This document shows, one piece after another, positions 2,271 through 62,706 of a stretch of 64,000 bases of DNA (its first letter is position 1; every line of letters starts with the position of its first letter). This DNA comes from Scilla litardierei. Lineage: Eukaryota > Streptophyta > Magnoliopsida > Asparagales > Asparagaceae. Location of the stretch: positions 358,025,486 through 358,089,485 of the forward strand of contig CM061142.1 of NCBI GenBank assembly GCA_030789695.1. Reading direction: 5' to 3'. The position numbers were made by a program, and so were the translations under genes. The notes under the pieces were generated by a model. That model had not been told where the DNA came from. It saw nothing but the letters and a program-made list of their open reading frames with translations, and searched no databases.

Positions 2271-3306
2271 TGTTTTCCAATTTTAGTGAATTTCTGGAAT
2301 TTTCTTATAATTTTTTTTGATAATAAATTTTCTTAGTCGACTAATGTTTTGTTTAATCGACTAATATATCCAGATTTCTTTTACCTATTTTTTTTCTGTT
2401 CCTATCTATTAGGACTGTTCAATATACCCTATCTTCGGACATTGTTCTTTCTTCTATGACTTTAGTTTGTTCACAATTTTTTTTATCTTAAATTCTTACC
2501 TGCCAAAGGGCATTTTTTCTAATGTCAGCCGCATACCTTGCCTTGGAGATTCCATTAGGCCACTTGTCTCTTTGTCATTCGGTCACAACATTGCCTAGAA
2601 TCCTGCACTTCTCTCTTCTCTTGGATTAATACCTTGTCATCATGATGCCTAGAATCCCACACTCATCTTGGAAATTGGCTTTTACAATTTCCTTTTCCAA
2701 CGCACTCTAGGCCACGTGTCATGTTTTCATTCGGCCACCTCTTTGCCTAGAGATCCGAAATTCATCTCCCCTTGGAATGGGAACCCACATTTATTCCATC
2801 TTGGGGTTTGCATTCTTTTTAAATATTTTTTTTGAAAGAGTTTTTTTCAACAACCCCATTCATTAGTTTGACCAATCTTCATAAAAGCCTTCAATGAATC
2901 TCACCCACTACCGCACTTACCAACGCCTATTTTTAGTTTTCAAAAATTTTAATTTATTATTTATTCTTTTAAAATCAAAATCCGAACGGTTGAGCGTTAG
3001 ATTTTTTTTCGGTTGTCTTAGTCGACTAACCAAACTCTTGGCCGACTAACTCGGTTTTTTAAACCGTTTCCGATCTAACTTCCGTCTTTTCGCATTTTAG
3101 TTTCTTCTTCCTCCCGCCTCTTCACATATTTTTGAAAACTTTTCAGTTCTCTCTCACCCATTCAGTTTCTCAAACTGCTCAAGAACTGATCATGGCACCC
3201 ATTCACTTGGATAACTACTCCCACTATTGCCTATTTATTTTCGGAAATTTCCCTTCATTTCTTTTATCCCAACCGAACCCTCTCTTCATCCTCATCTTCT
3301 TCTCTG
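2271..3306 (+). other. Untranslated internal region of element A between pol and env-like ORF
   Basis: AT-rich and without a credible ORF. It carries two of the five 20-bp-spaced palindrome pairs of this element (2333-2364 and 3018-3049). A pyrimidine-rich leader with TTCCTCCCGCCTC near 3105-3120 precedes the downstream ORF. Confidence 0.6.
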
Positions 3307-4542
3307 ATGGCTCTTCCTCAATTCCGTGATGCCGTGGCCGAAAATCGCTTCAACGCCTCCGCAAATGCAAAGTTCCATCCTGAGCGCTTCATCGATTACA
3401 ATGCTCTTGCTTCCTTCAATATTCTCTCTATCCTATCCGCAGCCGGCCTCGAGAAGATCTAGGCACTCGGGAACAAGGAACCCTACTACCCCCTTCTCGT
3501 CCGCGAATTCTACGCCAATCTCGAGCCATGCGTGGTTGGTCGTGATACTCACATTCTCTCCCGTGTCAAGAACCTCCCAATTTGTCTCACTCTTCGTCGG
3601 ATCTGTGAGTTGATTGATCTTCCTCCCCATTTTTCAGGTTCTCTCAATTTTACAATGACCGATCCCCGTATCCTAGCAAAAATCGCAACCCCTTGGGTCC
3701 ATAAACTTTCTGCTATTCATTTCCACCCCCCTGCACGCATCATTCTAAAGGTTATAGTCTCCAATCTTATGCCGAAAGGCGGCTCCTTTAACTATCTTTC
3801 CAACGAATTGGAGCATTGCCTTTATGCGGTGATGGGCGGTTTACCTATTAACTGGGGTTTTGTGATCTTGCAATCCATTCTTCGACCGGTTCAATCTCAT
3901 ATCTATCATCCTTCCTTTATAACCTTGGTCCTAAAGATGTTTTGTGTCCCTCTCGATGGAGAAATTGCCGTCTCCAATCCTTATAATATCAACATCATCA
4001 CTTTGCACAATATGCATTTGGATCTTCCGGACCCTGAGGAATCCGATGCGGCCAATAGTGATGATGATGATGCCGATGAAGATCCCGAAGAAGACCCCGT
4101 AGAAGACCCCACTTCAGCCGATCCCGACTATACTCCGACCCAAACCACTTACGTCCCCTCCTCTACACCGAGTTCATCCCGTGGTTTCCGTCGTTTTGTT
4201 AAGAAATAATGTGTCCACAAGTGTTTTCCAGAGTGCCGCACCAATCCTAGATCCTGTCCCCTAAAGACCCCACGGACATCCTCTACTCCTCGCCAAACCA
4301 ACCTGTCTGTTCTTTCCGGCCTTAGGGAGGATGTTCGGTCTCTTCACGATACGGTCACTACTGGATTTAGGGAATTTCGGTCAGCCTTGACTGAACAGGC
4401 TCACGTTATCGACCAAGTACAACTCAATCAGAGCAAGCTTGTTTCTGCACTTGAGGCTCTAAATGTAGTTGCTCCAGAGGAAACACCCCGTCGTAAATCG
4501 CGACGTAATTCTCAGGACTATGGCTCCCCTTCCGGCTGTTAG
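3307..4542 (+). pseudogene. Env-like / putative plant retrotransposon ORF downstream of pol, two in-frame stops
   Basis: One frame runs from ATG 3307 to TAG 4540-4542 (about 411 codons), interrupted by in-frame TAG at 3460-3462 and TAA at 4207-4209 but not frameshifted. The conserved core (VREFYANLEPC, LPICLTLRRICELIDLPP, HPPARIILKVIVSNLMPKGG) resembles the 'putative plant transposon protein' domain found downstream of pol in Sirevirus-like elements. After it come a long acidic stretch (DDDDADEDPEEDPVEDP), a Ser/Thr/Pro segment, and a C-terminal part with heptad-like spacing (LREDVRSLHDTVTTGFREF) suggesting a coiled coil. I see no obvious signal peptide or membrane helix, so 'env-like' describes position only. 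Function is unknown. Confidence 0.75.
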
Positions 4543-4917
4543 ATTGTGGCGACAGTTGCCGTTGTTTACTCCTCCGTTGTGTTGTTTACTGTATTTTGGT
4601 TTGCTGATGTCGGATACTAGGTCGTATGTAGATGTGCTGATGATCTTTTGCTGTTGTTTTTTCTTGTTGCATAATGGTTTTTAGATGTGTTTTGTAATCG
4701 GCCATAGGGCCTTAGTCCTAGGTATGTGGGAATGTATGTTTGCTAGTCACTTTGTATCCTTTCTATATATGTTCTGTTTAGTAAAGCTCTGTTTTGTTCT
4801 GATTCGTAAATATTATGTTCCCTGTTTCGTAATCATTCTGTGTTATTTTTACTCTTAGTCGACTAACATGTTCCTTAATCGACTAATTTTATTTTTCCCC
4901 ATCTTTTTGTCAATGAC

Positions 4918-5069: not shown

Positions 5070-6419
5070 TGTTGGGATTTCATAATCCCATGTTCACTTT
5101 CCTATTCTATTCCATATGATTTTGATGTGACAATTATTATTATTGCTACTCACTCTATCTATGCAGATATGCAGATTCCTAATATATCCACGCTTGGACA
5201 ATAATCACTTGATAAGGAATCCCTGCACAAAGGCATTTCAAATACTCACATGAAGCTCAACATACATATCTACGGAAATCTACGGACTGATGTATTTTTT
5301 ATATTTATAGATTTCAGAGCCTTGAAAATGAAATTCATCTAAGTCCTAGGTTCCTAATAACATATCCTACCAACCCTTTTTCAGACAAGTCAAAATTCAC
5401 GTTTTTCTGTCTTAGTCGACTAAGGCATACATTAGTCGACTAAACATTTTTTTCTTCGAATTTTGGCCTGAAAATTTCTGAGTAGTCTTCAGTCAACATC
5501 AGAAAGTTACCGTTAAAATTTCAGTCAAAAATTCCAAGTTTGACTTTTAGTCGACTAAGACTTTCTTTAGTCGACTAATGAAATTTTGTGTCCGTTTTTT
5601 CTGAAACTTTCCAGACCGTTTCTGAACGGTAGGAAACTCCTTTTCCCCCCATTTTCCCTCAGAATAACTGCCCAAAAATACTATAAATAAGTGGGCATAC
5701 CCCTCATTCTTTTCACACAACTTTCTTCTCTCTTTCTTACTAGAATTGTTGATTCTAAGCAATCTTGCCTTAGTTGCTCTTTTCTTATTTGCAAGAAGAA
5801 ATCCATAGATTTCTCTCTTCTTATAAGAACGGAAGAACTTCAAGATTCTTAATCATAGATCTTTTGGAAATTGAAGTTTTCTTCCTTGGAGCAATTTTGA
5901 TCTTTTTCAACATCAATTTAGAAAGTTGTTTGTGTTCATAATTGTAAGAAGATATCGATTGATCTCTCTCTTCTTTTATGAACCAGAGAACTTCAAGTAT
6001 TGTTCTTCATTTCATATTTTATACATCTTGAAGTCTCTCTTTAAACACCATCCTTGAATTTCATTCTAAATTCATAACAAGGCTATAGGTGTTTTTCTAT
6101 TTCTTATTTAACAGGTTTTGAATCTCTGTTAGAGATTGTACAAAGTTTGGGACACGGGGAGTGTCGCCATTTTTGTAAGTTTGCGCTTACGGGGCAAGTG
6201 GTTATAGTGGATTGAAAATCTCTACGGGGTAGAGGACTGGAGTAGGATCACAAGGATCCGAACCAGGATAAATCTCTGTGTTTGCGATTGATTTAATTTT
6301 TCCGCACTTGTCATTTTATTTTCATTGCCATCTTTGCAAATATTACTAACATCTTATTTGCAACATTTTTTAATATACACTATTCACCCCCTCCCCCTCT
6401 AGTGTATTTGATCCTTACA
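5070..6419 (+). repeat. 3' LTR of element A
   Basis: It begins TGTTGGGATT directly after the polypurine tract and ends GATCCTTACA. A short inverted repeat (TGGGATT / AATCCCA) lies at the 5' edge. TATAAATA at 5682-5689 is the likely core promoter. Two pairs of a 12-bp palindrome lie about 105-270 bp upstream of it. The downstream part has the GGATCCGAACCAGGATAAAT-type block seen in Sirevirus R/U5 regions. Confidence 0.9.
5412..5578 (+). promoter_or_regulatory. Palindrome array of element A: TTAGTCGACTAA pairs at exactly 20 bp
   Basis: Perfect 12-bp palindromes at 5412-5423, 5432-5443, 5547-5558 and 5567-5578 form two pairs, each with a 20-bp start-to-start register and an unrelated 8-bp spacer. 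The array ends about 104 bp upstream of the TATA box. Three more pairs with the same 20-bp register lie in the internal region (2333/2353, 3018/3038, 4855/4875), where the second word is slightly degenerate. Confidence 0.85.
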
Positions 6420-8052
6420 GGCTAGAATTTCACAAGGATGGACATCAAGTGGAGCATTACCAAAGTTTGGAACTTGATGAAGATAATATCATCAAGAGGC
6501 GCCAAAGCTTGGAAGATGATGGGGAGCATCAAGGCATCAAGAGCTTGAAGCCTTAGAATCTAGGAGATGCAAAATGTAATTTATGTAATTTCTATTACTT
6601 GCATTTCTATTTTTTGAGTCTATGATTTTGTAATGCCTTGATAGATGGTCACTTATTCATGCTTATGCATTAACCATCTTAGTGAGCCTTAGGATTTTCA
6701 TAGAAACCATTCCAATAGGTTCCCCATGCCAAATAACTCAATTGGGGTTTTTGGCCTTCTAACAGGCGACTGCTGAAGGCAGAACATGCAATTGGGTGAT
6801 CTCCAAGCGCCTGGCAAACTTCTATAACCGACTGTTATGCACAGCTCAAGTCAACTTTTTCTTGACTCTTTATTGAGCTTTTGTTGCAGGCGACTGAAGT
6901 TCATTTGACAGGCGCATGTCTACCAACAGGGCCTTGAACTTTGTTCTTCAGTCATTTGAGTGCCAATGTGTGTAACTTGTCCTTTTTGGGCACCAATCAA
7001 TTTTTTGTGACAGCCGACTGATTTAGAGTTTACAGTCGCATGTCTATCTTCAAGCACCTTGACTTTGGTCATCATTCATTTGAATGCATAAGTGTGAACG
7101 TTGTGTTTTTCCTGCTCCATTCCATCCCATGTGACAGCCGCCTACTGAAGTATATTCAGGCGCCTGCACAGTGTACATGCACCTATGTAGTCTTCTACAG
7201 TCGCCTGTCCTGGGTCAGATTATAGCTGTTGGAAATTTTCTAGACATTGATCAGTCGCTTGGGGTGTCTTCTACAAGCGCCTATCTAAGATCTTTTAGCC
7301 CAAAATCTAGCCGTTGCAAATTTGTTCATTTGGCCTTTTTGCTTGGTTTTGAGGGGTTATTGTGGCTTCCTATATATAGGAGATGGGTTAGTTCTGTTAG
7401 AACTCTTGGTTAACATTGAATGTCTTAGAGAATCATTAAGCCACTCGTATTCTCTCATTTACCTCTCATGGGCACTATTCTCTTCATGCATTGAAGCTTG
7501 CTCAAGGGAAATCCTCCAAGTGAAATCAAGCTCATCTCAACACTTGGAGATTCTCTTCCATGTCTTCTTCTTCATATTGAGTACGTTCATCTCAAGGCAA
7601 AGGTAAGAGTATTTAATTCATCTTTTTGAAGTAAAAAATTAACTTTCTTTGTAAGAGTTTCTCTTTGTGAGGGTTTAACCCTAACTTTCTTTATAAGAGT
7701 TAGTTTCTCTCTTTGAAAGAGATTAACCCTTGTGTAGGGTTGGTTGGTTGTGTACTCTCTTTGTGAGAGTTTGGTACTCTCTTTGTGAGAGTTCATATCT
7801 CTTTGTGAGATTGTATTCACTACCTTGTATAGGATCATAATAAATATTTAGTGTTGCTAGATGTACCTAAGTTGGAAAACCAGGGTAAAATATTTGTGTT
7901 AACGTTTGCTTGATTGTGTTGTTTAAATTTCTCTTGCACTTATAATTCCGCATTTGCAAGTTTAATTTTTAATTTCACAATTATTGCGATTATATTCACA
8001 CCTCCTCTAGAGTGTTTGTTGTTAGTATTGCAAGGCATACATGGTCCTTACA
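6420..8052 (+). repeat. 3' portion of a second Sirevirus-like LTR (element B), interrupted by element A
   Basis: The sequence ends CATGGTCCTTACA at 8052, like the LTR end at 62706 (GGGTCCTTACA). It has TATATATA at 7371-7378 and a palindrome array upstream of it. The array block 7011-7052 closely matches the block at 61310-61345 of element D, so the two LTRs are related. No primer-binding site follows, so this is a 3' or solo LTR. Its 5' part is not visible; element A probably inserted into it. Confidence 0.75.
6763..7283 (+). promoter_or_regulatory. Palindrome array of LTR B (CAGGCGACTG / CAGTCGCCTG), 22-bp register
   Basis: Related words start at 6763, 6804, 6825, 6887, 6909, 7011, 7033, 7135, 7157, 7176, 7198, 7252 and 7274. 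Pairs 6887/6909, 7011/7033, 7135/7157, 7176/7198 and 7252/7274 are all exactly 22 bp apart; 6804/6825 is 21. The array ends about 88 bp before the TATA box. Confidence 0.8.
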
Positions 8053-8635: not shown

Positions 8636-9978
8636 GAATGGATCCTCCTCTCCATATGGATCCTGAAAGGGAGTGCTTTGCCGACACAATGCAGCTTTCC
8701 AAATGTACGATTGGCAAATAAAGATAGGCTGGAAAGGAATGTATGCACAAGAGAAATATAGTAACCAAGAAAATAAAATAAACAAGAAGTATGGAAGGTA
8801 GAATGTTGGTGGAACCAGCACTCTCCGTCTCCAAAATAAAACTAAATGTTGCCTCCCCAGCAACGGCGCCAAAACCGTGTTCGGCTCCGGATTTACACCC
8901 GGAAGCACGACTCACCGCAAGTGTACTATGGTGTAGTATAAATGAAAAGTGTTGAACTCTGATGGGGCAGTCATTATGTGTTAAGTTGTTCGGGAGTGAG
9001 AGAATACATGGTTAGGGGTTGTCTTAAGAGAAATTGTTGTCACGACGATTGGTTTCAACAAGTTTTAAAAGATCTAGGGCAACGGGAATACCCGCTAGGT
9101 CGTTCAGGCTCGAACACTTGGTTGAGAATCCTATCGTTGAATTATGAGTTAGGGTGAGAGTGTCATATCTGAGAATGAGAATGAGTAGTCAACCACCATT
9201 GAGCTACACGTCTAACGTATTTCAATGTGTCACCGCACTTTCGTTTGGCTTCACACATAGATATGTGCATTACGCTTGACATAATTCCCATGTCACAACC
9301 CGCATCCATTACCATGGGCTATGGTTGGGACACTACACTATATTGGCTCTAGTAGTTTGGCTACTATCGTAGGGCACCGGCTAGAGAATTAGGTTTTAGT
9401 AGTGACCCCTAGTGCACGTGCCACTCTCGTGAGCACAAGCCCTAGAAAGTGACTACAAAACCCTAAACTGATTCATACGGATTTCCCTAGAACTGGAGTT
9501 GTTCTCACTGGTCTCCACTTCTAGGGCTAATCCCCCAAAATCTGGGTTCAATCGATTATATCGTAACCCTAGGTTCATTCAACTAAAGGCAACCTAGCAT
9601 TCGATCCCTAAGATCCTAGGGGTTCATACCTAAATCCTAGAAACGCACTACTCAAGCATGGTTATGGAAATCATCGCAAAAGCAATATAAAAAATAGCAA
9701 GAGACTTTGCAAGCCTGTGAAAATGGTACCAAAAGATAGAGAATCACAAATAACACAGAAATATATTAAAATATCTAAAATCTGACCGTTCACAAGAGAT
9801 CGAAACGTAGCAAAAGATCCAAAATTTCTTCGTTCTCCAAGGTGACGGCTCACAAAAGTTGCAGAAATTAAGATCCATTAAACCTAATTAATCGTTATCT
9901 TTTATGCATTCACCGATCCCAAGAAAGTAGACCCAAAATCTGTTTAATATCCAACAACTTAAAGGCTGGCAATATGGC

Positions 9979-10301
9979 GCTTGGTCAATCGCGGCCTAGC
10001 GCCCAGCCGAGCGCCCCTTCGATGCTCCATCTGGGCAGATTTGGCTTGGAAAGTGGCTCAGTCGAGTGGGATGGCTGCTCGGCCACAGCACCCTCGCTTG
10101 GCCGAGCGACCTTGGTGCTCGGCTGAGTTAAGGAGACAGAGATTTTCAGAGATTTTCAGTCAGTCAAGGGGGTCGCTCATCCCGAGCAGTTGAGGCGACC
10201 GGCTGAGCGACATTTTGCCAATCAGCTTCCTTTTTCCTTCACTCTCTTGCGTCTCTTAATGATACCAGCTCGGCCGAGCGAGCCATGTCACTCGGCCGAG
10301 C
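9979..10301 (-). promoter_or_regulatory. Palindrome array of the Tat/Athila-like LTR (GCTCGGCCGAGC), 21-22 bp register
   Basis: GCTCGGCCGAGC-like words start at 9979, 10001, 10056, 10077, 10096, 10117, 10175, about 10197, 10268 and 10290. Spacings within groups are 22, 21, 19, 21, about 21 and 22 bp. On the minus strand the array lies upstream of the TATA-like box at about 9900, ending roughly 70 bp from it. Confidence 0.75.
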
Positions 10302-10960: not shown

Positions 10961-13506
10961 TGTCATGCCCTGCTCTTCCAAATACGGGAGACACATTGTG
11001 GACGAGGCCGCCGTAGTATTCAGACACTGGGCTTCGAGCCCCTAACCTCCAAATACTACTAGGCTTTAATTGTGGTTAGAATAAAATTATCTAAGCAGGC
11101 CACTACGATATACTAGAAAAGTACAGAGAGTAAGAAATATAATGCTCCAACAGAATTTAAAACCGTAAGTGCTGAAAAGTAAACAGTGATGAACATCATT
11201 AAACAAGATACATTATACTCTCTGTACAAGTACCAATGGTACCAAAAGTACAACAAAAGGGGTAGAAAAAAAGGGAAATCCACCCTCAAGAAACCCCAAA
11301 AAGTGTCCACACCCTTACACACACTCCCGAGGCTAACCCAGGGAAGTCCAGGTGGACCAACTCTCCATCTGATGTCTCTAGCTATACCTGAGGAGAGGAA
11401 GAAGTATAAGTCTGAACACGTCCTGACTTCGATGCAACTACCTCAAGACTTGAAAGTGTACATGTGATACGTCAACGCATGACCCCGTAGAAATCCTAAC
11501 TAAGCTAGGTTGGACCCAGTTTAAAACCGGATTACCTATCTAAGGTTGGTCTAAAAGTGAGAGGCCAACAGAATATACATAAGTATTCATATCAGAGCAT
11601 GCAAGCATAGAAAAGAAACTGAGGACATGACAACATAATGGCAGCATTTGTAAATTAACAACAGTTATAACAAATTATCAGCTCACATGTTTGGGAATCC
11701 GTGTAACTAGTAAGACACCTTTACGGAGCTGGACTTAACCCAGGGTGAGTGAAAAGTGGTACCTCAACCAGCGGCATGAGCACTGGAGGGGCCTCTCGTA
11801 ACTCCTCCATTGGGTGTGAGAAATCTCGGTTTTTCTGTGGAAAACAGAGCAACCCATCATTTACCGTCATGGTGCATCACGAGTACACCACCGGGCTCTC
11901 TAACCATGTCTACTCCCCGTGCTGGTTGCCAGGAGACTGGGTAGAAATCATCATAAGTGTCCACTCCTTAAAAGCCTACTGTTTACACTTTTCCCCCCAA
12001 CCAAATCTAGAGCTTCACCCATTTCTGAATGAATTGAAGACTCCAGGCTTATTTTCTCATCTCACTCTGATTTCAGTTATTTCTTAGTTCTTTCACTTTG
12101 GTACATCATACTCATATTCATCCTCATTTTGATTTCACAAATTTCATTTGCATTAGTGGTCTCAGTACCACATATCATGTTGTCATTTACCTCACTTCTC
12201 AATTTTAGATTCATATGGAGACTTGTATAAATAAACATGCTGCAACATAAATAAAACAAGTGATTTTTCTACTATATTGCAACATGGTTCATAACATGGA
12301 AATTAAAAAATTTATTTAATTCAACATATTTAATTTTGCAAGTAGACAGATCATAGTTTACAATCATAATTAGTCCTCAATTTGGCAATTATATGCAATC
12401 AACCAAGCTATAAAACAATTACTGTCAGTTCTGAAAGAAAACAAAACTGAGAAAATCAGAAAACCACACGACCGTATGGCCAAATCCATACGGCCGTGTG
12501 GATTTAATAAAAGAGGCTGTGAGATCCACATGGCCGTATGGTGAAATTCATACGTCCATATGGAGTTTGGTTAGCTGAAGGAAAGCATACGGTCGTATGG
12601 GCTGATGGCCACATGGCTGTATGGATAATTCCATACGGCTGTGTGGATCAAATGACTAAACATACTCAAAAACTCACGCGGCCATATGGAAAATTACATA
12701 CGGCCGTGTGGATTTAAAACTTGAATAAAGTCGTATCAAAAAAATGACCACACAATCGCACAACTCCTTATTGATCAAAATAACGACCACAAGGTCGTAC
12801 AGGGTAGGCCATACGGCCGCGTGACGCATGCTGTCGAAATCGACAACGACGAAATTAAAACAAAAACATGATTAAACTAAATCCTAACTAGCTTCTTTAG
12901 GATTCTACCTTACACAATCCACCACAGAATCTGGGGCCCTTCTTAGTCCTAAAAGACCCTCTGATGCTAGCTCCCCCCTTCTTCTCCAAGAGTTAACGAA
13001 CTAAGTTCAGGTCGGGCTGACGGGTTTGTTAAGACATCGACAGCAAGGGTTGGTACGAGAGGAAGACTTGAGAGAGAGATTGATTTCCCTTTGTTTTTTC
13101 CTTTGAGTTTCTCTCAGTTTTTGCTGTTATGATCCCCCTCTTTCCACCTCAAGCTCCCTAAGATCACTCTAAGCTTGACACCGCATGCTGGTTAGGTGAA
13201 AGTCACCCTGGATTTGCCACCAACAAGGTGGCGGGGGCTTAATAATAAGATTTTAGATTTTTAATTCAAATGACATACTCCATATACCATTATACCTTGT
13301 ATTCTACATCGTAATACATCTTAATACAAGTATTCTTATCCAATACTTGTTTTATATCTTCTATTATGCTTTATAAAAATTTATAAAAATAATTCCCACT
13401 TCCAGAAATTAAAAGAAAATAGTGGACATACCCCCAAATTTTATACGCATGTATTCATTCCAAAAATTCGTATAAATACGTGTATATAAAGATTGGGGTC
13501 ATTACA
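10961..13506 (-). repeat. Probable solo LTR (Gypsy), 2546 bp
   Basis: The left end is TGTCATGCCCTG and the right end GGGGTCATTACA, that is TG...CA with partly inverted termini. The first 60 bp resemble the start of the Gypsy LTR at 14086 (TGTCACGCCCCGC...CCAAGTATGGAAGACG), so it belongs to a related chromovirus-like family. Flanking 5-mers are GACGG (10956-10960) and GACAG (13507-13511), an imperfect TSD. No internal region adjoins it. Orientation is inferred from that similarity. Confidence 0.65.
12464..12825. promoter_or_regulatory. Palindrome array of the solo LTR (CCATACGGCCGTATGG), 22-bp register
   Basis: Sixteen-base words based on CCATACGGCCGTATGG start at 12464, 12486, 12526, 12548, 12585, 12609, 12631, 12674, 12696, 12787 and 12809. 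Intervals inside groups are 22, 22, 24, 22, 22 and 22 bp. Several copies keep only one half perfect. I could not place a TATA box relative to this array with confidence. Confidence 0.8.
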
Positions 13507-23702: not shown

Positions 23703-24990
23703 ACTATTGGAGCCACGAGCGCTTACAAGCGTGCCGGATCATCATTAACGATGATATCAGAGAGCTAACGGCACTAGAAGATGAGTAGAAGAAGAAGGAA
23801 GGCGAATGAAATGACGAGGAAGCGAGAAGAAGGAGAAAAGAATACTGAAACAGGCTACTCGACCCAGTGATGCAGCTCACTCGACCGAGTGGAGCAGCGC
23901 ACTCGACTGAGTGGAGCTGACACGTCCAATCTAGCCTGAGGAAGAGCCGTAATGTACTCGATCGAGTGGGAATTTCCACTCGCCCGAGTGAGAAGCCCAC
24001 TCGACCGAGTGGAGATAGAAAATGTGAAGAAATTCTTCGACGCTTCTCTGTTTTAAAGAGGATCTGTAGTAGGTCCTACTCGACCGAGCAAGAATCTCAC
24101 TCGACCGAGTGAGAAGGCTACTCGGCCGAGTGGTCTGAACTTCCAGAACGCTATAAATCCCTATTCTCTGTAGATTTCCCACTCAACCGAGTGAGCAGTT
24201 CACTCGGCCGGGTTTGCAGCTATTCAGGGGGAAATCTGTCAGGATTTTCTGAACTTTTTGGGCGGCTATAAATACCCGGTTTTGTGGGCAGCCCAAAGAG
24301 AGACTCTTTAGAATAATTTCCTTAGTTTTAATTAGAGTTCTATTTTTCTTTTGGCGAAATAATTGGAGAGAAGGATCTAAATTTCTTATTCTTGAAGCTT
24401 GTATTCAAAAATTGGTTTGTCTAAAGTCTCCCAAGATGATATTTTTATGCTATATTTGTCTCTAATTCTAAGTTTTGTGATGAATTATATTGCACATATT
24501 GTTTCTATTGTGATTTCTATGATGAATTGTGAGTAGTCTCTTTGCTCCAGGGCAAAGGGATGAACCTTACGGATCTAAAGTATGATTTGTGAGATCTATT
24601 GAATTGCTATATCGCTAAACTTGTTAATGGTTAGATTGTGATTGATTTACTACGGATAGCTATGGATTTCTATTAGATCTTGAGCTCGAGAGAGGATATT
24701 GACCTAAGGGAAGCCCTAGATATTCGATTTACATCTATAACCGAGATTCCCTAGAATTGGTGTGTGAGAGCGACCAAATCTAGCATCTTTATTATATTTC
24801 TATAATTATATTCGTTTGTACAACGGTAAAACAGATACGAACTATCTCGATCTAGATTCGAACTTAAGTTGCGCGAGAGCAACCTTGAGTTGGAATTGAA
24901 TATTATTGTTGATCTTAATGCTAGTAGTTTGTACTAGGCTTGCGCGAGAGCAAGGCTCTAGTTTAGATTACTATAGTCTTGCATAGAGTG
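23703..24990 (+). repeat. Tat/Athila-like LTR segment with palindrome array
   Basis: Plus-strand TATAAATA at 24267-24274 (and TATAAATC at 24152) lies downstream of an array of ACTCGACCGAGT palindromes. The block CACGAGCG...GCCGGATCATC (about 23712-23742) resembles CACGAGCACC...GCCGGAGCATC in the minus-strand LTR ending at 10610. The Gypsy element 14086-23697 interrupts this LTR; the LTR start is probably TGATAGGCTC at about 13983, left of that insertion. The 3' end is not certain. Confidence 0.6.
23857..24213 (+). promoter_or_regulatory. Palindrome array ACTCGACCGAGT, 21-22 bp register
   Basis: Words start at 23857, 23879, 23901; 23956, 23978, 23999; 24078, 24099, 24120; 24181, 24202. Intervals are 22, 22; 22, 21; 21, 21; 21. 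Three consecutive groups hold three sites each. The array ends about 54 bp before the TATA box at 24267. Confidence 0.85.
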
Positions 24991-43975: not shown

Positions 43976-45710
43976 TGAAGTGCCCTGTGATAGCTACTGC
44001 ACACGTACTAGAGGGGGGGGTGAATAGTACTTAAAATAATCAAGATAGTTATTCCTAATTATTGTGCAAGAAACAAACGACAATGCGGAATTAAACAACT
44101 ATCAACAAGAAATAAACAACGCAAACAAAGTATGTTACTGGGTTCGGATCCACCCAAGTCTCCCCGACTTGTTCCCGGTGATCCTACGTCCCAACCACCC
44201 GGATCCCCTCCGGATACTTGAGTTAGCAACCCTAACTCAAGATTTCCACTATGAAATACTTGTGAAAAACCTTCACAAGTCAAATCATACAAAAGACATG
44301 TGACTCCCACAAACCGGGATCACACCCTCTCTCACAACCGAGAGACACAATTCAAATACGATAGAAATGAAATAAACTCTTACCTTACAAAATCCTATGC
44401 CTTGAGTATACTTACCAAATTAGGGCAATGATGGATTTTGAGGAGAGAATGTCACCAAACCGAATCTCCACCAATACGATCAGCGATCGAAGGCAAGGAT
44501 GGAGGATGGTGACTTTGGATCAAGCTCTTGGCTTGGAAGGCTCACAATGGAGAGAATCTCTCTTGAGGAAATGGCTCAAAGAGTTGAGGGAAAGATTCTT
44601 GTGAGGAAGAGAAAGCTTTAGAATGGAGTTGAATAGCTTCTCTTAGATTTCTCCAAATCTCTAAAATGGCAGCCTTGGATCTTATGAAAGAGCCCCTCCA
44701 ACTATATATATAGGATAGAGGAGAGAGAGAGAGAGAGAAAAACGTATCAAGAGAAACTCCAACGGCTCTTTTCTGAACCCAACTAGTCGGTCAAAGAACA
44801 ACCACCGACCGACTAGTTCATCAACTAGTCGGTCGGTCAATCAATGTAGACCGACTAATGGAAGAACAGCCAAAAAGTCGAAGTACGGGGAAAGACAACT
44901 AGTCGGTCTAAGAAGACTTGTCGACCGACTAGTTTCACAACTAGTCGGTCGGTGAATGATCTTTGACCGACTAACGTCGAAATAGAATAGGTTGACTTCA
45001 AGATGACTTAGTCGGTTTAAGAACAAATGCTGACCGACTAGTTTCTCAACTAGTCGGTCGGTAAACATTCTTTGACCGACTAACTCGAAACAGTAGCTCA
45101 GGCTTAAAATGACTGTACACAACTAGTCGGTCTAAGAAGGATTGCTGACCGACTAGATCGTCATCTAGTCGGTCGATGACTCTTCTTTGACCGACTAACT
45201 GTAGTCATAGAAAGAGCTGAATTAGAGAAGGCAAACTAGTCAGTTTAAGTAGAGTTTCCGACCGACTAGATCGTCATCTAGTCGGTTGGTGACTCTTCTT
45301 GAACCAACTAACATGCACAAGAAGCCGAGGGAAGAAGCGATAGGCTTCGGGAATGTTTCTAATGGCTTCTATGATAATCCTAGCTCTAAGATATGAGAGA
45401 AATGAAGTATATAATGTAAGTCCTACTCAAGGCTTAACATTCTAATCTATGAAGTAAGAAGACTATAAAATAAACCTTACAAGCCGTCTTCAAAGCTTCA
45501 ATCTTCATTCCTCTTGACTTCAATAAAACTCCTTGAGCTTCAACGAAGCTCCAGGCACGATCACGCGTATTGAGAAGTCTTGAGACGTCGCTTTTGATGT
45601 TCGTATTCTTTTGGCGACGATCTCCATAACTGCGCTCACAAATAAGTTAGTATACATTATTTATGTTTGCTCATCATCCAAAACCAAATCCGGGGAATCA
45701 ATACACAACA
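43976..45710 (-). repeat. 3' LTR of element C
   Basis: 1735 bp, minus-strand TGTTGTGTATTG...GGGCACTTCA. The TATA-like run is at 44703-44712, with the palindrome array upstream of it on the minus strand. Confidence 0.95.
44782..45311 (-). promoter_or_regulatory. Palindrome array of element C, five four-site modules (3' LTR copy)
   Basis: Inverted word pairs ACTAGTCGGTC / GACCGACTAGT start at 44782/44807, 44824/44849, 44898/44923, 44940/44965, 45007/45032, 45049/45074, 45122/45147, 45164/45189, 45235/45260 and 45277/45302. Every pair has a 25-bp register, which puts the core CpGs 22 bp apart. Consecutive pairs are offset by exactly 42 bp inside each module, and modules recur every 109-116 bp. 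The array ends about 70 bp upstream of the TATA box on the minus strand. Confidence 0.9.
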
Positions 45711-51748: not shown

Positions 51749-51855
51749 GGGAGGGGAATGCCCCTCGACCTCTACGTGCGTCTCTCTATTCATCTTTTTG
51801 TTTATCTGGAAAGGAAACAAACTTAAATAAATTTATTTCATAGAAAATGATACAT

Positions 51856-54626: not shown

Positions 54627-55538
54627 TGTTTCAGAGTGTTTTCTCACTACAAAAGCGTTGACCGTGGATAACTCGGTCAACGTGGTCAAGGGATCCGCTT
54701 GGGTCCCTCGGGTGTGTTGAGTCGGTGCAGACGAGGCGCGAGTCAGAGTTGTGGATGACGTGGGGCACGTCGGCTTGGCCGAACCGAGATCCTTGGTCGC
54801 AAGGGGGGCGAGGGGAAGCCTCGTCCCGGGTCGAGACGCTCGGCCTCGGACGGACGTGCTCGGCCTTGGCGGTCGGACGACGAGGGGTAGCCTCGATCGT
54901 CCTGCTGGTTACGTGGCCGGTTGCGGGGCGGAGGGGAAGCCTCGGCCCGTGGATGTGACGTCCTCCTGCGCAGATGAGAACGCTCGTCAGGGGGGCCGGA
55001 CCTTGGTTCCGGCCAAATCCCCTCCGATGCCTAAGTCAGATAGTGATCTGAAAGAGGAGGCCCGGCGGAGACGGTTCGACTCGAGTGGAGATCGGAACGG
55101 CGTCTACCGGCGCGAGCGGGGGAGGAAGGAGTTTGGAATGGGGGAACTAGGTCGTTGATGGAGTACCTTAGGTTTTAGTTACCTGAGATCCGGTCCCTTG
55201 TCCAGTCGTCTTTCCAGCCCTTTTATAGACCTCCCGTCGTGATTGCCCACGTCGCTCGTCCGCCCTCGATCGTGCCCCCTCAATCCGCCCCCCCATCGCC
55301 GCTCCCTGCACCATGCCAGTACCTCCCCATCACGGCCATTAAGTGGTAGCGGGATCAGGGGAACGGTTATCGCTGGAGTGGGCGGGTGACTCGTGCGTTA
55401 TCGGGGCCGGGTCGGGTTGATATTTGGGGGCCCTCTATGGGACTTCGCAGGGCGGGCCTGATCGCGCAGATGGGCTTCTGATCATCAGTCGGGTTTCTGG
55501 GCTCGTGTCTTTCGGGCTTCGGCCAAATAGGCGTAACA
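54627..55538 (-). repeat. 5' LTR of the Tat-type Gypsy element
   Basis: 912 bp, same length as the 3' LTR, colinear throughout. Confidence 0.95.
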
Positions 55539-56190
55539 GTACCCATTAGTTGAGTAACCGTATAAGTTTTCATGTCATTACTTTCCTCGATGGCGAAGGT
55601 ACGCTTCTCCCAACAAGAAGGAAGTCCATCGATTATCTTCGAGACTTTCTCCTTTTGGGTGTAGGTCTTCCCAAGAGCTTCCAACTCGTTCGTGATGTCG
55701 ACGAATCGAGCATAATACTCTTTCATCTTTTCACCCTGCAGCATATGAAATAATTCGAAATCTTTATTCACGACCACGAGTTTAGAATCTCTTACCCGAC
55801 TCGTCCCTTCATGTAAGATGAGGAGGGAGTTCCATATTTGATATGCACTCTTACATGTGCATATCTTATTGAAGTCCTCGGGCTCCAATGCGCATTGCAA
55901 GGTGTTCATTGCCTTGGCATTACTTACCTCCGCGGGAGTCCACTTTGCGAAATCTTGTTCGGAGGGCTCGACGTACTCATTCATCGTGGCTCTCCAAAGT
56001 GAAGCACTCCGAAGGAACGTTTCCATTCGGCATTTCCAGTATCCGTAGTTGGTACCGTTGAAGGAGGGAGGCCTAGATGAAGATTGCCCTTCCAAAACTG
56101 AAGAAGCTCATTGACGATCCTTGAAGACATTGTAGTCGTTGTTTGTCATGGCTTTGACTTTGTAGCTTTAAACTTGGCTCTGATACCAAT

Positions 56191-57919
56191 TGAAGTGCCC
56201 TGTGGTAGCTACTGCACACGTACTAGAGGGGGGGGTGAATAGTACTTAAAATAATCAAGATAGTTATTCCTAATTATTGTGCAAGAAACAAACGACAATG
56301 CGGAATTAAACAACTATCAACAAGAAATAAACAACGCAAACAAAGTATGTTACTGGGTTCGGATCCACCCAAGTCTCCCCGACTTGTTCCCGGTGATCCT
56401 ACGTCCCAACCACCCGGATCCCCTCCGGATACCTAAGTTAGCAACCATAACTCAAGATTTCCACTATGAAATACTTGTGAAAAACCTTCACAAGTCAAAT
56501 CATACAAAAGACATGTGACTCCCACAAACCGGGATCACACCCTCTCTCACAACTGAGAGACACAATTCAAATACGATAGAAATGAAATAAACTCTTACCT
56601 TACAAAATCCTATGCCTTGAGTATACTTACCAAATTAGGGCAATGATGGATTTTGAGGAGAGAATGTCACCAAACCGAATCTCCACCAATAAGATCAGCG
56701 ATCGAAGGCAAGGATGGAGGATGGTGACTTTGGATCAAGCTCTTGGCTTGGAAGGCTCACAATGGAGAGAATCTCTCTTGAGGAAATGGCTCAAAGAGTT
56801 GAGGGATAGATTCTTGTGAGGAAGAGAAAGCTTTAGAATGGAGTTGAATAGCTTCTCTTAGATTTCTCCAAATCTCTAAAATGGCAGCCTTGGATCTTAT
56901 GAAAGAGCCCCTCCAACTATATATAGGATAGAGGAGAGAGAGAGAGAAAAACGTATCAAGAGAAACTCCAACGGCTCTTTTCTGAACCCAACTAGTCGGT
57001 CAAAGAACAACCACCGACCGACTAGTTCATCAACTAGTCGGTCGGTCAATCAATGTAGACCGACTAATGGAAGAACAGCTAAGAAGTCGAAGTACAGGCA
57101 ACGACAACTAGTCGGTCTAAGAAGAATTGTCGACTGACTAGTTTCACAACTAGTCGGTCGGTGAATGATCTTTGACCGACTAATGTCGAAATAGAATAAG
57201 TTGACTTCAAGATGACTTAGTCGGTTTAAGAACAAATGCTGGCCGACTAGTTTCTCAACTAGTCGGTCGGTAAACATTCTTTGACCGACTAACTCGAAAC
57301 AGTAGCTCAGGCTGAAAATGACTGTACACAACTAGTCGGTCTAAGAAGGATTGCTGACCGACTAGATCGTCATCTAGTCGGTCGGTGACTCTTCTTTGAC
57401 TGACTAACTGTAGTCATAGAAAAAGCTGAATTAGAGAAGGCAAACTAGTCGGTTTAAGTAGAGTTTCCGACCGACTAGATCGTCATCTAGTCGGTTGGTG
57501 ATTCTTCTTGAACCAACTAACATGCACAAGAAGCCGAGGGAAGAAGCGATAGGCTTCGGGAATGTTTCTAATGGCTTCTATGATAATCCTAGCTCTAAGA
57601 TATGAGAGAAATGAAGTATATAATGTAAGTCCTACTCAAGGCTTAACATTCTAATCTATGAAGTAAGAAGACTATAAAATAAACCTTACAAGCCGTCTTC
57701 AAAGCTTCAATCTTCATTCCTCTTGACTTCAATAAAACTCCTTGAGCTTCAACGAAGCTCCAGGCACGATCACGCGTATTGAGAAGTCTTGAGACGTCGC
57801 TTTTGATGTTCGTATTCTTTTGGCGACGATCTCCATAACTGCGCTCACAAATAAGTTAGTATACATTATTTATGTTTGCTCATCATCCAAAACCAAATCT
57901 GGGGAATCAATACACAACA
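56191..57919 (-). repeat. 5' LTR of element C
   Basis: 1729 bp, colinear with the 3' LTR. The length difference comes from TA and GA microsatellite units near the TATA box (about 56918-56947). Confidence 0.95.
56991..57520 (-). promoter_or_regulatory. Palindrome array of element C (5' LTR copy)
   Basis: Same ten pairs and registers as the 3' LTR. Substitutions inside core words include C-to-T changes of CCGAC to CTGAC at two sites. Confidence 0.9.
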
Positions 57920-59055: not shown

Positions 59056-60913
59056 TGACCGGTGCCCCGTTTACGGTTTGGGCGCGGTGTCGTTTTACCG
59101 CAAGTGCACGGTTAGTGTAGGGTGCGGGTTTATCGAACTCAGGGAGGTGGATGGCTTGAATGGCTACTAGCCTCGCCTAGGTTGTGTGCTAGCTACGCGG
59201 ATAATATGGGTGGAAATGTAGAAATAAAGAGAAGAGATAAAAAGACACGAAATGAATCCCCGCTAACACGGGCTAGAGTATACATGACACTTGGTATTTG
59301 ACTTGACCCAGGGTGAGACATTGCCCCAAAAGGTAGTACCTAGCGTCCATGGCCTGATATTCCGGTCGATGCCTAGTACGCTAGGTCTACCCAGTTTCGG
59401 ACGGTGGGCATTCCCATGTCCATTAACACCTTCCGTAACCGGGAGCATTAAGGCCACAATGATAACTCCCAACATTTCGTCCAAGCCGTTCCCACGTGCG
59501 AGGACTCGATGTCTACGCTAGGGGTGTGAGCTATGTCTAGGGAGTCAACCGCCAAGTTTATTCCCCCTTGGCCCGACGGTCAAAGGCGGTCTTTCTCCCG
59601 CCAATGACAATGAAACACCCCCGCGTAACCGTAATGGCCAAATAGGTCGAATGTGATTTCTAGCAATACATCGAAGCGGATCTTGACTGGACAAGACACT
59701 GGACCCCAATCCCCAACACAACTAGTGTGTTGCCATACAAATTGGACTCAGATTGCTAGAAATCCCCATTGACACATTTCATCAAACACATACCATGCAA
59801 TCAAGTCAAATGAAACAACCCAAGCATCAATCCTCCCCTAACCCGTATTAGGGTTCATTAATACTACTCAATGGTGAAGAACATAAAAATAAGCAACACA
59901 AAAGACATACAAACGTTCACCATCAAGCAAAATAAACACAATACAAAACAATTGTAAACAAGAGAAAGAAATACTTATCTCGCGTTTGAATCTTCAATCC
60001 ATTACAATATTTATTAGAAGATAAAACCTAATCTAATCTAACCTAAAACTCCCAAGAAATGAGAGTGAAGCTGCTGAAAAAAATGGTGGAAGATCATCCA
60101 CAAGTCGTGCCCCAACGTCTCTTTATAAGCCCCCTCAAAGCCCTCACTTTTTGGGTCCACAAACCAAGCAAAACTGTCAAAACAGGCCCACCCGATCGGG
60201 TGGAAGTTCACCCGATCAGGTGGAAATAAACAGAGACTAAACAGCTAAAATTTGGCTCACCCGGACGGCCACCCGGACACCAACCGATCGGTTGATCTGA
60301 AAATCCAGACAGCATCCCATTTCAGCACACAGCTGCGCTCAGAAAATTCTAGAAAAATGTAGAAAAATCGGATTTGGGCATGCGACCTATCGTTAGAAAT
60401 CTAACGAAAATGCCGACGCTAGAAAAATAAAAGAGCACCCAAAATACCTCTGGAATGATAGCAGATCTTCAATGAATGCATCAACAACACGTGAAAGGTG
60501 AAGAAAAGGCCACCTGATCGGTTGAAACATCAACCGATCGGGTGAGCTGCTTTGCATTGGCCATCGGGCTTCAGAAGCTTCAACCGGGCACTGAGGTGAG
60601 CGGGTGGCATGACCGGATCGTCGTTTGTTGATTTTCAGCTTTAGATGAACCGATCGGGTGAGATGTCACCCGATCGGTTGGAATTCAGCTTTAAATAGAC
60701 AGAGAGCTCTGTCGATCTCACCCGATCACTGAACCGATCGGGTGAGCTGCTCTTCTCTTCAGCTCCTATCCAGGTCGGATACGCGTGCATTAACCGATCG
60801 GGTGGCTCTGTCCACCCGATCGGTTGAGGGCTGAAATATGGTTTCTTCGTCGTTTGGCCCTCTGGATCGCGCGCGACTCCTCCCGTTGCTTCGGGGACTC
60901 ATGATATCTTCTT
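59056..60913 (-). repeat. Gypsy (Tat/Athila-like) LTR, interrupted by element D
   Basis: On the minus strand the sequence ends CTTGCGGTAAAACGACACCG...GGGGCACCGGTCA, like the CTTGCGGTGAGTCG... end of the LTR at 8878. TTATAAAG at about 60123-60128 is a candidate TATA box and a palindrome array lies upstream of it. The 5' part of the LTR (beyond 60913) is displaced by element D. No primer-binding site is recognised, so it may be a solo LTR. Confidence 0.55.
60190..60825 (-). promoter_or_regulatory. Palindrome array ACCCGATCGGGT / AACCGATCGGTT, mostly 20-bp register
   Basis: Words start at 60190/60210, 60259/60282, 60512/60532, 60649/60669, 60720/60732 and 60792/60814. Three pairs are exactly 20 bp; the others are 23, 12 and 22. 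On the minus strand the array ends about 62 bp before the TATA box. Confidence 0.75.
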
Positions 60914-62706
60914 TGTTGAGTATTGGACTTCTCCCTATTTGGTGTTAATGATGAGCAAACATAAATACTTGTGACTAATCCCCTATTTTGTAGTTAATCC
61001 ATTACCTAAGCTTATTGTGAAGATCAACTAGCAATGGATGACTCACATACATCATTGAAGGCAAATGACATGAATTGGATGATCGTAGATTGATGATTGA
61101 AGCTCCGTAAAGACTTCAAGCTCATACGATGGAAAGAAGAGATTATTCGTCAATGTAATTTTTTCTTTTATCTCTTCAAGTATGTAGCTTAGAAGTAGAA
61201 CTTTGATGGAGCACTCACACACATCTACACTCTGTCATAGGACATCATTAGACCTTTGTCCTTTGATCCCAATTCAATTCTCTTTTGTTTGTGCTAGGAT
61301 TGTTTATAACAGCCGACTGTTTAACAGTTTACAGTCGCCTGTCTCAAAAACAGTCGACTGTGTTTTGTTCTACAGTCGCCTGTTATGCACAGACTATTAC
61401 AATATAGTTTTGGGCCTTCTCTGATTATTTCGCACAGGCTACTGTTGAACAATTCACAGGCGCCTGTCCTAGTGACAGTCGACTGTGTATTGTAAATCAG
61501 TCGCCTGTCTCTCCTTGCCTAAACTCTATTTGATCTGATTTCTACAGCCAGTCGACTTATGCTGTATATACAGTTGACTGTCTATACTGCAACAGTCGCC
61601 TGTCTGTAAGTCATTTCTTTGACTCAGCTCTCTGGAAATTTCTCTTGCTTTTGACAGTCGTCTGTTTAAGGTTTTAAAGTCGCCTGCTCTGATTAACAGT
61701 CGACTGTATTACTTGAATCAGTCGTCTGTCCAGTATCTTGTGAGATTTCCAGTATTTGTCTAACTTACTTTTCTCTCGGTCAGTCACCTGTCGAAGAAAT
61801 TTCAGTTGCCTATTCTTTTAACAGACGACTGTCTTTGCTTCATCAGTCGACTGTCCACGTGGTAAGTTACCGTTATGAATTCTCACCTACCCTTGCTGAC
61901 TGTGCAACGTTCGACTGTGGATTGTTCAACAGTCGACTTTCGCGAGTTCAGATTATATCCGTTGAGATTTTTCTCACGGATTTCAATTGGGTTTTTGCCT
62001 AAACTGTTTTGCGGATTTGAGAAAGCTATAAATAGAGCTTCTACTATTTCATTGGAAAATTACTCATTCATTGCAAAATCTCTCAAGATTTCATTTCTAA
62101 AGATCAAAGCTCTCAAATCCAAAGCCCTAAGTATTTCCTAATCTTGTTCTCTTGATCTCCAACCTAGAACCAAAGATTGATCTTCTAGGCAATTGGTGCA
62201 GTCAAGAGAAAGGGCTTTCTTCTCTCTTCCAAGAGAGTTCTTCAACACACATCACACTTCTCCTTCAAGTTCTACTTCAAAGCATAGGTGATTGTAAGTG
62301 TTGCTTTCATATTTCATAACTTTCGTTATTTGAATTGTGCTCTCGGTTGTGAGAGTGGTTTTGCTTGCTCCCTGGTTGTGGGAGTTAAGGACATCGATTG
62401 TATTCGATTGCACTTGTAGGGTTGCTACAAGTGGGCTTTAAGTAAACCTCAAGTTAGGGTTCTAACTTGAGTATCCAATGGTATCCGGGTGGTAGGGACG
62501 TAGGATTATCGGGAACAAGTCGGGGGTTGACTTGGGTAATCCGAACCCTTAAAACATCTTTGTGTTTGAGTGTGTTTCTCTTTGGGTCGTTTTTCTATTA
62601 CGCACTATTTGTTGGATTGCATTTTATTTGGCGTAAATTCCTTTAAATTTGCATAAACACTATTCAACCCCCTTCTAGTGTTTTACCCATAGACAGGGTC
62701 CTTACA
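60914..62706 (+). repeat. 5' LTR of element D
   Basis: 1793 bp; TATAAATA at 62027-62034. The array of CAGTCGACTG-type words lies upstream of the TATA box; a U5 block shared with element C lies downstream. Confidence 0.92.
61310..61939 (+). promoter_or_regulatory. Palindrome array of element D (CAGTCGACTG / CAGTCGCCTG), exact 22-bp register
   Basis: Word starts: 61310, 61332, 61351, 61373; 61435, 61457, 61476, 61498; 61549, 61571, 61593; 61655, 61677, 61697, 61719; 61781, 61803, 61822, 61844; 61908, 61930. All eleven within-pair intervals are 22 bp; pair-to-pair offset inside a module is 41-42 bp. Complete modules have four sites and begin every 106-126 bp. The array ends about 88 bp before the TATA box. 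Confidence 0.92.

What the first reader, a model, noticed from the sequence alone, without database searches (positions are those of the whole stretch)
2333..61939. Unrelated LTR families share one promoter geometry: CpG-centred palindromes every 20-22 bp, just upstream of the TATA box
Eight LTR families (Copia: 5070-6419, 6420-8052, 43976-45710, 60914-62706; Gypsy-like: 8878-10610, 10961-13506, 23703-24990, 59056-60913) each carry an array of a private 10-16-bp palindrome. The words differ (TTAGTCGACTAA, CAGGCGACTG, GCTCGGCCGAGC, CCATACGGCCGTATGG, ACTCGACCGAGT, ACTAGTCGGTC with its inverse, ACCCGATCGGGT, CAGTCGACTG) but all hold CG at or near the centre, and spacing is almost always 20-22 bp, about two helical turns. 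In seven of the eight the array ends about 50-105 bp from the TATA box. This fits cooperative binding of a dimeric factor on one DNA face, or a methylation-sensitive switch. I recall reports of conserved non-coding and palindromic motifs in Sirevirus LTRs but cannot verify how far they cover this cross-lineage geometry.
Basis: partly seen in the sequence, partly recalled or inferred. Interest (0 to 1): 0.93.

Follow-up and report, generated by a model that had tools for sequence, protein, structure and literature searches.

The report
Evenly spaced palindromes in retrotransposon promoters
Jumping genes of both main kinds (Copia and Gypsy) in this plant-like genome carry rows of short CpG-holding palindromes about two DNA turns apart, mostly in front of their promoters, likely docking sites for paired regulatory proteins; such palindromes were known in one Copia group, and no earlier report of the shared spacing or the Gypsy cases was found.

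Summary
In 264 kb (window plus an arbitrarily placed 200-kb block of the same genome), 69 of 108 close pairs of alike CpG-holding palindromes lie 19-23 bp apart. Non-CG palindromes give 3 of 62, mirror-word controls 10 of 69, dinucleotide shuffles none. Genome-wide, three words occur as spaced pairs at 32,684, 6,073 and 1,209 places against 18, 0 and 0 for reversed patterns. Spacers vary far more than words in 11 of 12 arrays. Words are conserved between elements but not between the two LTRs of one element, which suggests selection.
Corrections: the 16-bp word has no exact copy in the window; strict TATA adjacency holds in 6 of 8; two Copia families are clear relatives; long-range helical phasing did not replicate.
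Sirevirus LTR palindromes upstream of TATA were published in 2010 (PMC2829016). New here: Gypsy LTRs carry them, one word occurs in both superfamilies, and spacing is fixed word by word.
Best reading: U3 enhancers bound in pairs by dimeric factors, identity unknown. RNA hairpins and element-encoded binders remain possible.

The parts
5412..5578 (+). Array A: two pairs of TTAGTCGACTAA (20 bp apart within each pair, 115 bp between pairs) in a Copia 3' LTR; TATA at 5681
   Evidence: Copia RT on the same strand at 1266-1853; polyC integrase-signal-like motif at 6380
2333..2364 (+). Internal pair of the A word, 20 bp apart, before the ENV-like ORF
3018..3049 (+). Internal pair of the A word, 20 bp apart, before the ENV-like ORF piece
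3463..4209 (+). ENV-like ORF piece (PF20167) of element A, taken only downstream of an in-frame stop
   Evidence: E 1.6e-20
4855..4886 (+). Internal pair of the A word, 20 bp apart, after the ENV-like ORF
6762..7284 (+). Array B: CAGNCGNCTG words, 7 of 12 gaps at 19-23; TATA at 7370
   Evidence: lineage unproven (weak alignment to H)
9989..10301 (-). Array C: GCTCGGCCGAGC-type words in a Gypsy-type LTR; only 2 of 7 gaps at 19-23; no strict TATA
   Evidence: PBS TGGCGCCGTTGC on the minus strand at 8860
12465..12823 (-). Array D: imperfect CATACGGCCGTATG words, 4 of 9 gaps at 19-23 (all 22); no strict TATA within 160 bp on either side
   Evidence: same family as L001 and L004; orientation and Gypsy lineage recalled, not shown
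23857..24213 (+). Array E: ACTCGNNCGAGT words, mostly in triples 21-22 bp apart; TATA at 24266
   Evidence: lineage not determined
44782..45287 (-). Array F (one LTR): ACTAGTCGGTC and its inverse alternating, CG-CG spacing 22/20/22; TATA at 44713 on the minus strand
   Evidence: LTR pair 43973-45710 / 56188-57919
56991..57496 (-). Array F2: same array in the other LTR of that element
   Evidence: Met-type PBS at 56177 and gag 55367-56107
60190..60825 (-). Array G: A(C/A)CCGATCGG(G/T)T words, 4 of 9 gaps at 20-22; second site the reverse complement of the first in 3 of 4 such pairs (1 tie); TATA 62 bp away
   Evidence: 81.7% over 1,475 bp to the L009 LTR that has a Gypsy PBS
61309..61940 (+). 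Array H: 19 sites ACAGNCGNCTGT, spacing 22/19/22 within groups; TATA at 62026
   Evidence: Met PBS at 62709 and copia gag at 62875

Best explanation
The arrays are the U3 enhancer of these LTR promoters. Each palindrome is a site for a dimeric sequence-specific DNA-binding protein with CG at or beside the dyad. Neighbouring sites are held 19-23 bp apart, about two helical turns, so that two dimers sit on the same face and bind cooperatively near the TATA box. Each word has its own preferred spacing. Different element families use different words, probably because they use different members or variants of one or a few factor families. Shown: the sites, their spacing, their placement upstream of a TATA box in 6 of 8 window arrays, their recurrence across the genome and in both superfamilies, and conservation of words beyond spacers. 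Inferred: protein binding, cooperativity, activation, and that the factor is a host protein.
For: Sharp spacing peak with controls (69 of 108 CG-holding palindrome pairs at 19-23; non-CG 3 of 62; mirror words CG 0 of 17 and non-CG 10 of 52; shuffles 0.0 of 0.8). Genome-wide spaced pairs: CAGTCGACTG 32,684 places against 18 reversed, with 47 of the first 50 listed at 19-22; ACTCGACCGAGT 6,073 against 0, 88 of the first 100 at 20-23 and 10 more at 41-42; TTAGTCGACTAA 1,209 against 0, 49 of the first 50 at 19-22. Spacers vary while words stay in 11 of 12 arrays. Differences between separate elements: words 98/693, spacers 278/1298 (p=7e-5); between the two LTRs of one element: words 45/625, spacers 56/1148 (p=0.05, other direction); 2x2 p=0.0006. 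Half-sites vary independently. One Copia element repeats the layout inside: array L010:4603-4955, TATA at 5035, CT-rich run, ORF from 5262. The same word with the same spacing lies in Copia LTRs (H, L009/L010) and in a Gypsy LTR (L021/L023; TGGCGCC PBS next to the LTR, Gypsy integrase on the same strand).
Against: No binding protein was identified and no binding or expression data were available. C and D lack a strict TATA nearby, and 6 of the 16 arrays outside the window have none within 160 bp on either side. Longer gaps are not helically phased in the genome-wide list. The three words tested genome-wide prefer 22, 21 and 19-20 bp, so one exact phase is not kept. The arrays also fold strongly as RNA, which fits a rival. 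Many arrays are related, so independent cases number about 14. Spacing from listings rests on the first 50-100 places, all on contig C1. Word calling favours conserved copies; the conservation result held whichever of the two sequences defined the words. The simpler CpG-CpG test is not specific: parts of the window without these arrays also exceed shuffles at 19-22 (398 against 315.5, sd 12.1) over a broad range. The share of LTR families without arrays was not measured.
Confidence: 0.6

Rival explanations
1. The palindromes act as RNA (or extruded DNA) hairpins: neighbouring copies pair into stems with loops of about 10 nt, feeding small-RNA silencing or serving an RNA function of the element.
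For: All 11 arrays folded (of 24) are more stable than the mean of dinucleotide shuffles, z -1.5 (B) to -13.8. Maize Sirevirus palindromes are reported as small-RNA hotspots (passages in PMC10760457 and PMC5311732; the primary paper is not held). CCGATCGG modules are inverted 22 to 0 (6 ties), D 3 to 0, and F throughout.
Against: No covariation within sites (p=0.99) or between paired sites (p=0.14) over 13 arrays, though the second test is blind to a uniformly inverted layout. For ACTCGACCGAGT the direct layout, whose stem has two central mismatches, occurs at 6,073 places and one stem-perfect inverted layout at 1,276 (the other inverted order was not searched; high-copy tandem families swell the direct count), with similar spacing (42 of 50 listed at 19-23). 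Over all modules counted 44 are inverted, 41 direct, 37 ties, and L004, a relative of D, is 0 to 2.
Confidence: 0.17
2. The factor is encoded by the elements themselves, as VANC proteins of Arabidopsis VANDAL transposons bind private tandem motifs and undo silencing; each family's word then matches its own protein.
For: Mostly private words per family. Candidate extra ORFs exist: PF20167 beside the A word pairs, the ORF behind the L010 internal array, an antisense PF04195 ORF at 49539-50381 in another Gypsy element. VANC targets often form tandem repeats that vary between related elements (abstract of PMC5735166).
Against: One word occurs in both Copia and Gypsy elements. In element F no such ORF was recognised in the two ORFs of its own that were scanned. 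The ENV-like piece found no homologue at E<=0.001; no DNA-binding test was made.
Confidence: 0.15
3. The arrays are CpG-methylation switches or miniature CpG islands, and palindromy and spacing follow from dense symmetric CpG.
For: CpG observed/expected higher in the array than in flanks in 21 of 24 arrays (two of them only marginally), equal in 1, lower in 2. Bousios 2010 described the Sirevirus clusters as CpG islands.
Against: The longer flanking words and word-specific spacing are not needed for CpG density. No C-to-T excess at word CpGs between the LTRs of one element: 9/235 in words, 9/135 in spacers, 4/231 in flanks.
Confidence: 0.05
4. Simple tandem duplication of a roughly 21-bp unit with no selection.
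For: L002:2535-2925 is such an array (spacer identity 0.88).
Against: In the other 11 of 12 arrays tested spacers are far less alike than words; words are conserved between elements but not between LTRs of one element; mirror-symmetric words show few such pairs at 19-23 (10 of 69; 6 of 75 gaps).
Confidence: 0.03

Closest known systems
Repeated motifs (RM boxes) of Sirevirus LTRs, Bousios et al. 2010, PMC2829016 (passages and sections 9, 10, 19 seen)
   Same: Palindromic words private to each element, many copies, clustered in the upper half of the LTR upstream of a TATA box, CpG-rich, extra copies before the ENV gene. Elements A, F and H match this; A and L008 have the internal pairs.
   Different: The paper calls them Sirevirus-specific, absent from other Copia elements, with a CGG-CCG core (one exception), and the parts read give no spacing. 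Here they occur in Gypsy LTRs (C, G, L009, L021), several cores are GTCGAC or CGATCG, and spacing is mostly 19-23 bp.
Palindrome clusters of maize Sirevirus LTRs as small-RNA hotspots (Bousios et al. 2016; not held, known from passages in PMC10760457 and PMC5311732)
   Same: Palindrome-rich regulatory LTR region. [quoted passage not shown]
   Different: No spacing rule and no Gypsy arrays in the passages seen.
VANC / VANDAL anti-silencing motifs of Arabidopsis, PMC5735166 (abstract and outline seen)
   Same: Family-specific short targets, often in tandem repeats, of a sequence-specific protein.
   Different: VANDAL elements (DNA transposons, recalled) with a known element-encoded binder; here LTR promoters, palindromes, and no binder known.
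U3 activator boxes of plant Copia elements such as Tnt1 and Tto1 (recalled; Tto1 13-bp element seen only as a reference title, symmetry of Tnt1 box I as a mention)
   Same: Short cis-elements in the LTR promoter.
   Different: One element at a time; no shared geometry across families that I know of.

Membership tests
Sirevirus RM boxes (PMC2829016) | Palindromic repeated word with dyad symmetry | tested here: met
   F is palindromic only as alternating inverted words
Sirevirus RM boxes (PMC2829016) | At least 8 copies per element | tested here: met
   B 13, C 8, D 10, E 11, G 10, H 19 in one LTR, mismatches allowed; F 18; A 4 in the LTR plus 6 internal
Sirevirus RM boxes (PMC2829016) | CGG-CCG core signature | tested here: not met
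   C and D hold CGGCCG and E does in part; A, B, H (GTCGAC) and G (CGATCG) do not. The paper itself lists one exception, Tnd-1
Sirevirus RM boxes (PMC2829016) | Cluster shortly upstream of a TATA box | tested here: met
   6 of 8 window arrays; not met for C and D
Sirevirus RM boxes (PMC2829016) | Extra copies 5' of the ENV-like gene | tested here: met
   A: 2333/2353 and 3018/3038; L008: 6152/6173 and 6523/6544 before an ENV-like stretch at 7009. L010 has an internal array before an ORF not shown to be ENV. Not seen inside element F
Sirevirus RM boxes (PMC2829016) | Restricted to Sirevirus (Copia) elements | tested here: not met
   C by PBS, G and L009 by PBS and homology, L021/L023 by LTR pair, PBS and Gypsy integrase
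Sirevirus genus (elements A, F, H) | Copia coding domains | tested here: met
   copia-type gag in F and H; RT of A matches a Copia RT at 40%
Sirevirus genus (elements A, F, H) | 5'LTR/PBS junction CA/ATTGG | tested here: met
   F and H (heptamer as given in PMC2829016); A has no 5' LTR in the window
Sirevirus genus (elements A, F, H) | PolyC-rich integrase signal and multiple PPTs | tested here: inconclusive
   polyC-like motif in A and H by pattern and in F by eye; repeated PPT-like words in A by eye only. No phylogeny was built
VANC-like anti-silencing system | Element-encoded protein that binds the motif | not testable with these tools
   candidate ORFs only

The most novel reading that the evidence does not exclude
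Plant LTR retrotransposons of both superfamilies have converged on, or traded by U3 exchange, one promoter grammar: paired CpG-dyad palindromes 19-23 bp apart, with a small interchangeable vocabulary of words, each with its own exact spacing, read by cooperating dimers of a diversified host factor family. The arrays are movable promoter cassettes that elements can also place in front of internal genes.
Probability: 0.35. Interest if true: 0.8.

Novelty: new variant of a known kind. Interest (0 to 1): 0.62.

Why it matters
To my knowledge what turns plant LTR promoters on is known for only a few model elements. If many large families in a genome use one spacing rule with swappable words, the words can be read as addresses of the factors that drive or restrain retrotransposons, factor screens become simple (paired words as bait), and LTR U3 function could be annotated from sequence in large plant genomes. 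The word shared by Copia and Gypsy elements points to a common host factor and makes the host-against-element question testable.

Tried and rejected
Simple tandem duplication: rejected for 11 of the 12 arrays tested. Chance spacing: rejected; the CpG-only version is weaker, since array-free parts of the window also exceed shuffles. Long-range helical phase at 10.4 bp: seen in 36 gaps of 14 representative arrays (p=0.0008; gaps of 45 bp or more p=0.02; odd-turn subset 14 of 22, p=0.006) but not in 35 distinct intervals of a genome-wide listing (p=0.33); not claimed. For one search, 14 of 24 called arrays were kept, one per related group; B and L010a were dropped for weak likeness to H, the other eight as close relatives or second LTRs. 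In one search the D family entered three times; one search repeats the test with one comparison per family; without the poorly aligned L021/L023 pair the LTR-pair counts are words 31/510, spacers 37/1011. In one search the 35 intervals were picked by me from the listing: rows with a site in between and repeats of one spacer family were left out. CpG decay as a methylation sign: no excess. Half-site covariation: none; its between-site part has no power against a uniformly inverted layout, so orientation was counted instead (which leaves out F, L001, L010b and L023). Non-CG palindromes have an excess of their own at 42 bp (17 pairs), not followed up. IMG/VR scans with two proteins gave no relative. 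ENV-like ORF homologues: none. Searches use the same sequence and are not independent. A genome-wide non-CG control word (CAGTTAACTG pairs) was asked eleven times and never answered; the non-CG control is therefore local. Pair searches for ACCGATCGGT and CTCGGCCGAG did not complete either. The idea that methylated CpG mimics T in a MYB-type core is recalled and untested.
Full report
What was checked. The window (64 kb) lies in a 3.68-Gb genome, at G000:C13:358025486-358089485, and holds LTR retrotransposons of plant type. The eight arrays were located by exact words and by degenerate scanning. Seven of the eight words occur exactly; CCATACGGCCGTATGG does not in the window but occurs 236 times genome-wide against 0 for the pattern read backwards.

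Is the spacing real? In the eight window arrays 51 of 85 adjacent gaps are 19-23 bp; placing the same number of sites at random in the same spans gives 9.8 (sd 2.9, maximum 22 of 5,000). Family C is weak on its own (2 of 7, p=0.14). An unguided search for arrays of palindromic 10-mers found 8 in the window (6 with CG; 27 of 55 gaps at 19-23) and 26 in an arbitrarily placed 200-kb block (17 with CG; 61 of 150 gaps); mirror-symmetric control words gave 3 arrays (0 of 9 gaps) and 17 arrays (6 of 66). Three of the block's CG arrays (word CGTTGCAACG) do not follow the rule, and that search missed F and found D only by another seed. A model-free test on window plus block took all pairs of alike near-palindromic 10-mers 11-60 bp apart: of 108 pairs holding CG, 69 lie at 19-23, none at 17, 18, 23 or 24, with a second peak at 41-42; of 62 non-CG palindrome pairs 3 lie at 19-23; of mirror-symmetric words 0 of 17 (CG) and 10 of 52 (non-CG); shuffles give 0.0 of 0.8. 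The 69 pairs fall in 31 one-kb bins. CpG-CpG distances alone peak at 22 in these LTRs (z 10.0), also at 4 (z 7.8, CGNNCG words) and less at 18, 20, 24-26 and 42; but array-free parts of the window also exceed shuffles at 19-22 (398 against 315.5), over a broad range, so that test is less specific.

Genome-wide. CAGTCGACTG-N(0-30)-CAGTCGACTG: 32,684 places against 18 reversed; of the first 50 listed, 39 are spaced 22, 7 spaced 20, 1 spaced 19, 3 spaced 39-40, none 21. ACTCGACCGAGT: 2,965 + 3,108 places against 0; of the first 100, 88 at 20-23, 10 at 41-42, 1 at 31, 1 at 39. TTAGTCGACTAA: 1,209 against 0; of 50 listed, 49 at 19-22 and 1 at 29. The listings all come from contig C1, and the tool calls its counts lower bounds. 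Each of these words keeps its own preferred spacing within the 19-23 band.

Not tandem duplication. Within arrays word identity is 0.67-0.89 and spacer identity 0.24-0.58 in 11 of 12 arrays tested; L002 is a true tandem (0.94/0.88).

Selection. Between separate elements of one family (four comparisons, one per family) words differ at 98/693 positions and spacers at 278/1298 (p=7e-5); between the two LTRs of one element, identical at insertion, words differ at 45/625 and spacers at 56/1148 (p=0.05, in the other direction); the 2x2 gives p=0.0006, and the result holds whichever sequence defines the words (fuller set). Words are thus kept while elements multiply and not kept afterwards.

Lineages. 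A, F and H are Copia elements that look like Sireviruses. C has a Gypsy-type PBS. G is 81.7% identical over 1,475 bp to an L009 LTR, whose element has LTRs 97.6% alike and a TGGCGCC PBS. The L021/L023 element has LTR stretches 87-92% alike, a TGGCGCC PBS next to the LTR and Gypsy integrase on the same strand, split by an interval of about 10 kb; a Copia gag with a Met PBS also lies inside (L023:3796-4487), read as a nested insert. Its LTRs carry CAGNCGNCTG words mostly 19-22 bp apart, like the Copia elements H and L009/L010; likeness to their LTRs is confined to the array region. B, D and E are unassigned.

Placement. TATAWA within 160 bp on the promoter side: 6 of 8 window arrays; of the 16 arrays outside the window, 10 have one on one side or the other, orientation being unknown for most. 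In one Copia element of the block a second array (L010:4603-4955) stands inside the element, with a TATA box at 5035, a CT-rich run and an ORF from 5262. Pairs before ENV-like stretches occur in A and L008. This agrees with the 2010 report that Sirevirus motifs also cluster before ENV.

Mechanism. Independent half-sites, fixed neighbour spacing, and direct and inverted layouts at similar spacing for ACTCGACCGAGT (6,073 direct; 1,276 in one inverted order) fit pairs of protein dimers on DNA better than stems in RNA. But CCGATCGG modules are inverted 22 to 0 (several of those arrays are related) and the 11 arrays folded are stable as RNA, so a hairpin role cannot be excluded. An element-encoded factor is a serious rival. 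Long-range phasing is unresolved: p=0.0008 in 14 families, p=0.33 in an independent list.

Literature. PMC2829016 was read in passages and in sections 9, 10 and 19. It describes palindromic, high-copy, CpG-rich motifs upstream of TATA in 13 Sireviruses, says they are absent from classic Copia elements, and found no common binding factor; its comparison is of Ty1/copia elements, and the parts read give no spacing. The 2016 maize paper is not held. Passages only were seen of PMC10760457, PMC5311732, PMC5738225, PMC11656987, PMC6911290, PMC10794571 and PMC11963269, and the abstract and outline of PMC5735166. Searches for palindrome arrays in Gypsy LTRs or for a spacing rule listed none that I recognised; several lists were capped (15 of 69, 15 of 101, 15 of 24, 12 of 32), and the library lacks most subscription journals.

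Verdict. A real pattern that recurs genome-wide. A new variant of a known kind.

Noticed in passing
window 49539-50381 (+): Antisense ORF with a PF04195 domain in a Gypsy element whose gag and integrase lie on the minus strand (48395-55538), as reported for Retand elements (passages of PMC11963269).
   Followed up: partly
L010:4603-5822: Internal palindrome array, TATA box, CT-rich run and extra ORF between pol and the 3' LTR of a Copia element: looks like a second, internal promoter.
   Followed up: partly
arrays F/F2, L009/L010, L009 pair, L021/L023: The array region differs more between the two LTRs of one element (101/1773) than the LTR flanks do (44/1832), as if it mutates or converts faster.
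   Followed up: no
CCGATCGG arrays (G, L006, L008, L009, L017, L018); ACTCGACCGAGT arrays (E, L002): Orientation of the slightly asymmetric word within a module differs by family: inverted 22 to 0 (6 ties) in CCGATCGG arrays, direct 17 to 0 (5 ties) in ACTCGACCGAGT arrays here, though genome-wide one inverted order of the latter also occurs 1,276 times.
   Followed up: partly
L011:4553-5019, L012:1889-2355, L020:8532-9009: A different repeated palindrome, CGTTGCAACG, with gaps of 13-16 bp and over 100 bp; does not follow the 19-23 bp rule.
   Followed up: no
window 24151 and 24266: Element E has two TATA-like boxes, one inside the array (by eye), as if the promoter unit had been duplicated.
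   Followed up: no
window 14085-16742 and 21028-23697: A 2.7-kb direct repeat, 93.4% alike, perhaps LTRs of another element; no palindrome array was called there.
   Followed up: no
window plus block: Non-CG palindrome pairs show an isolated excess at 42 bp (17 pairs), source not looked at.
   Followed up: no
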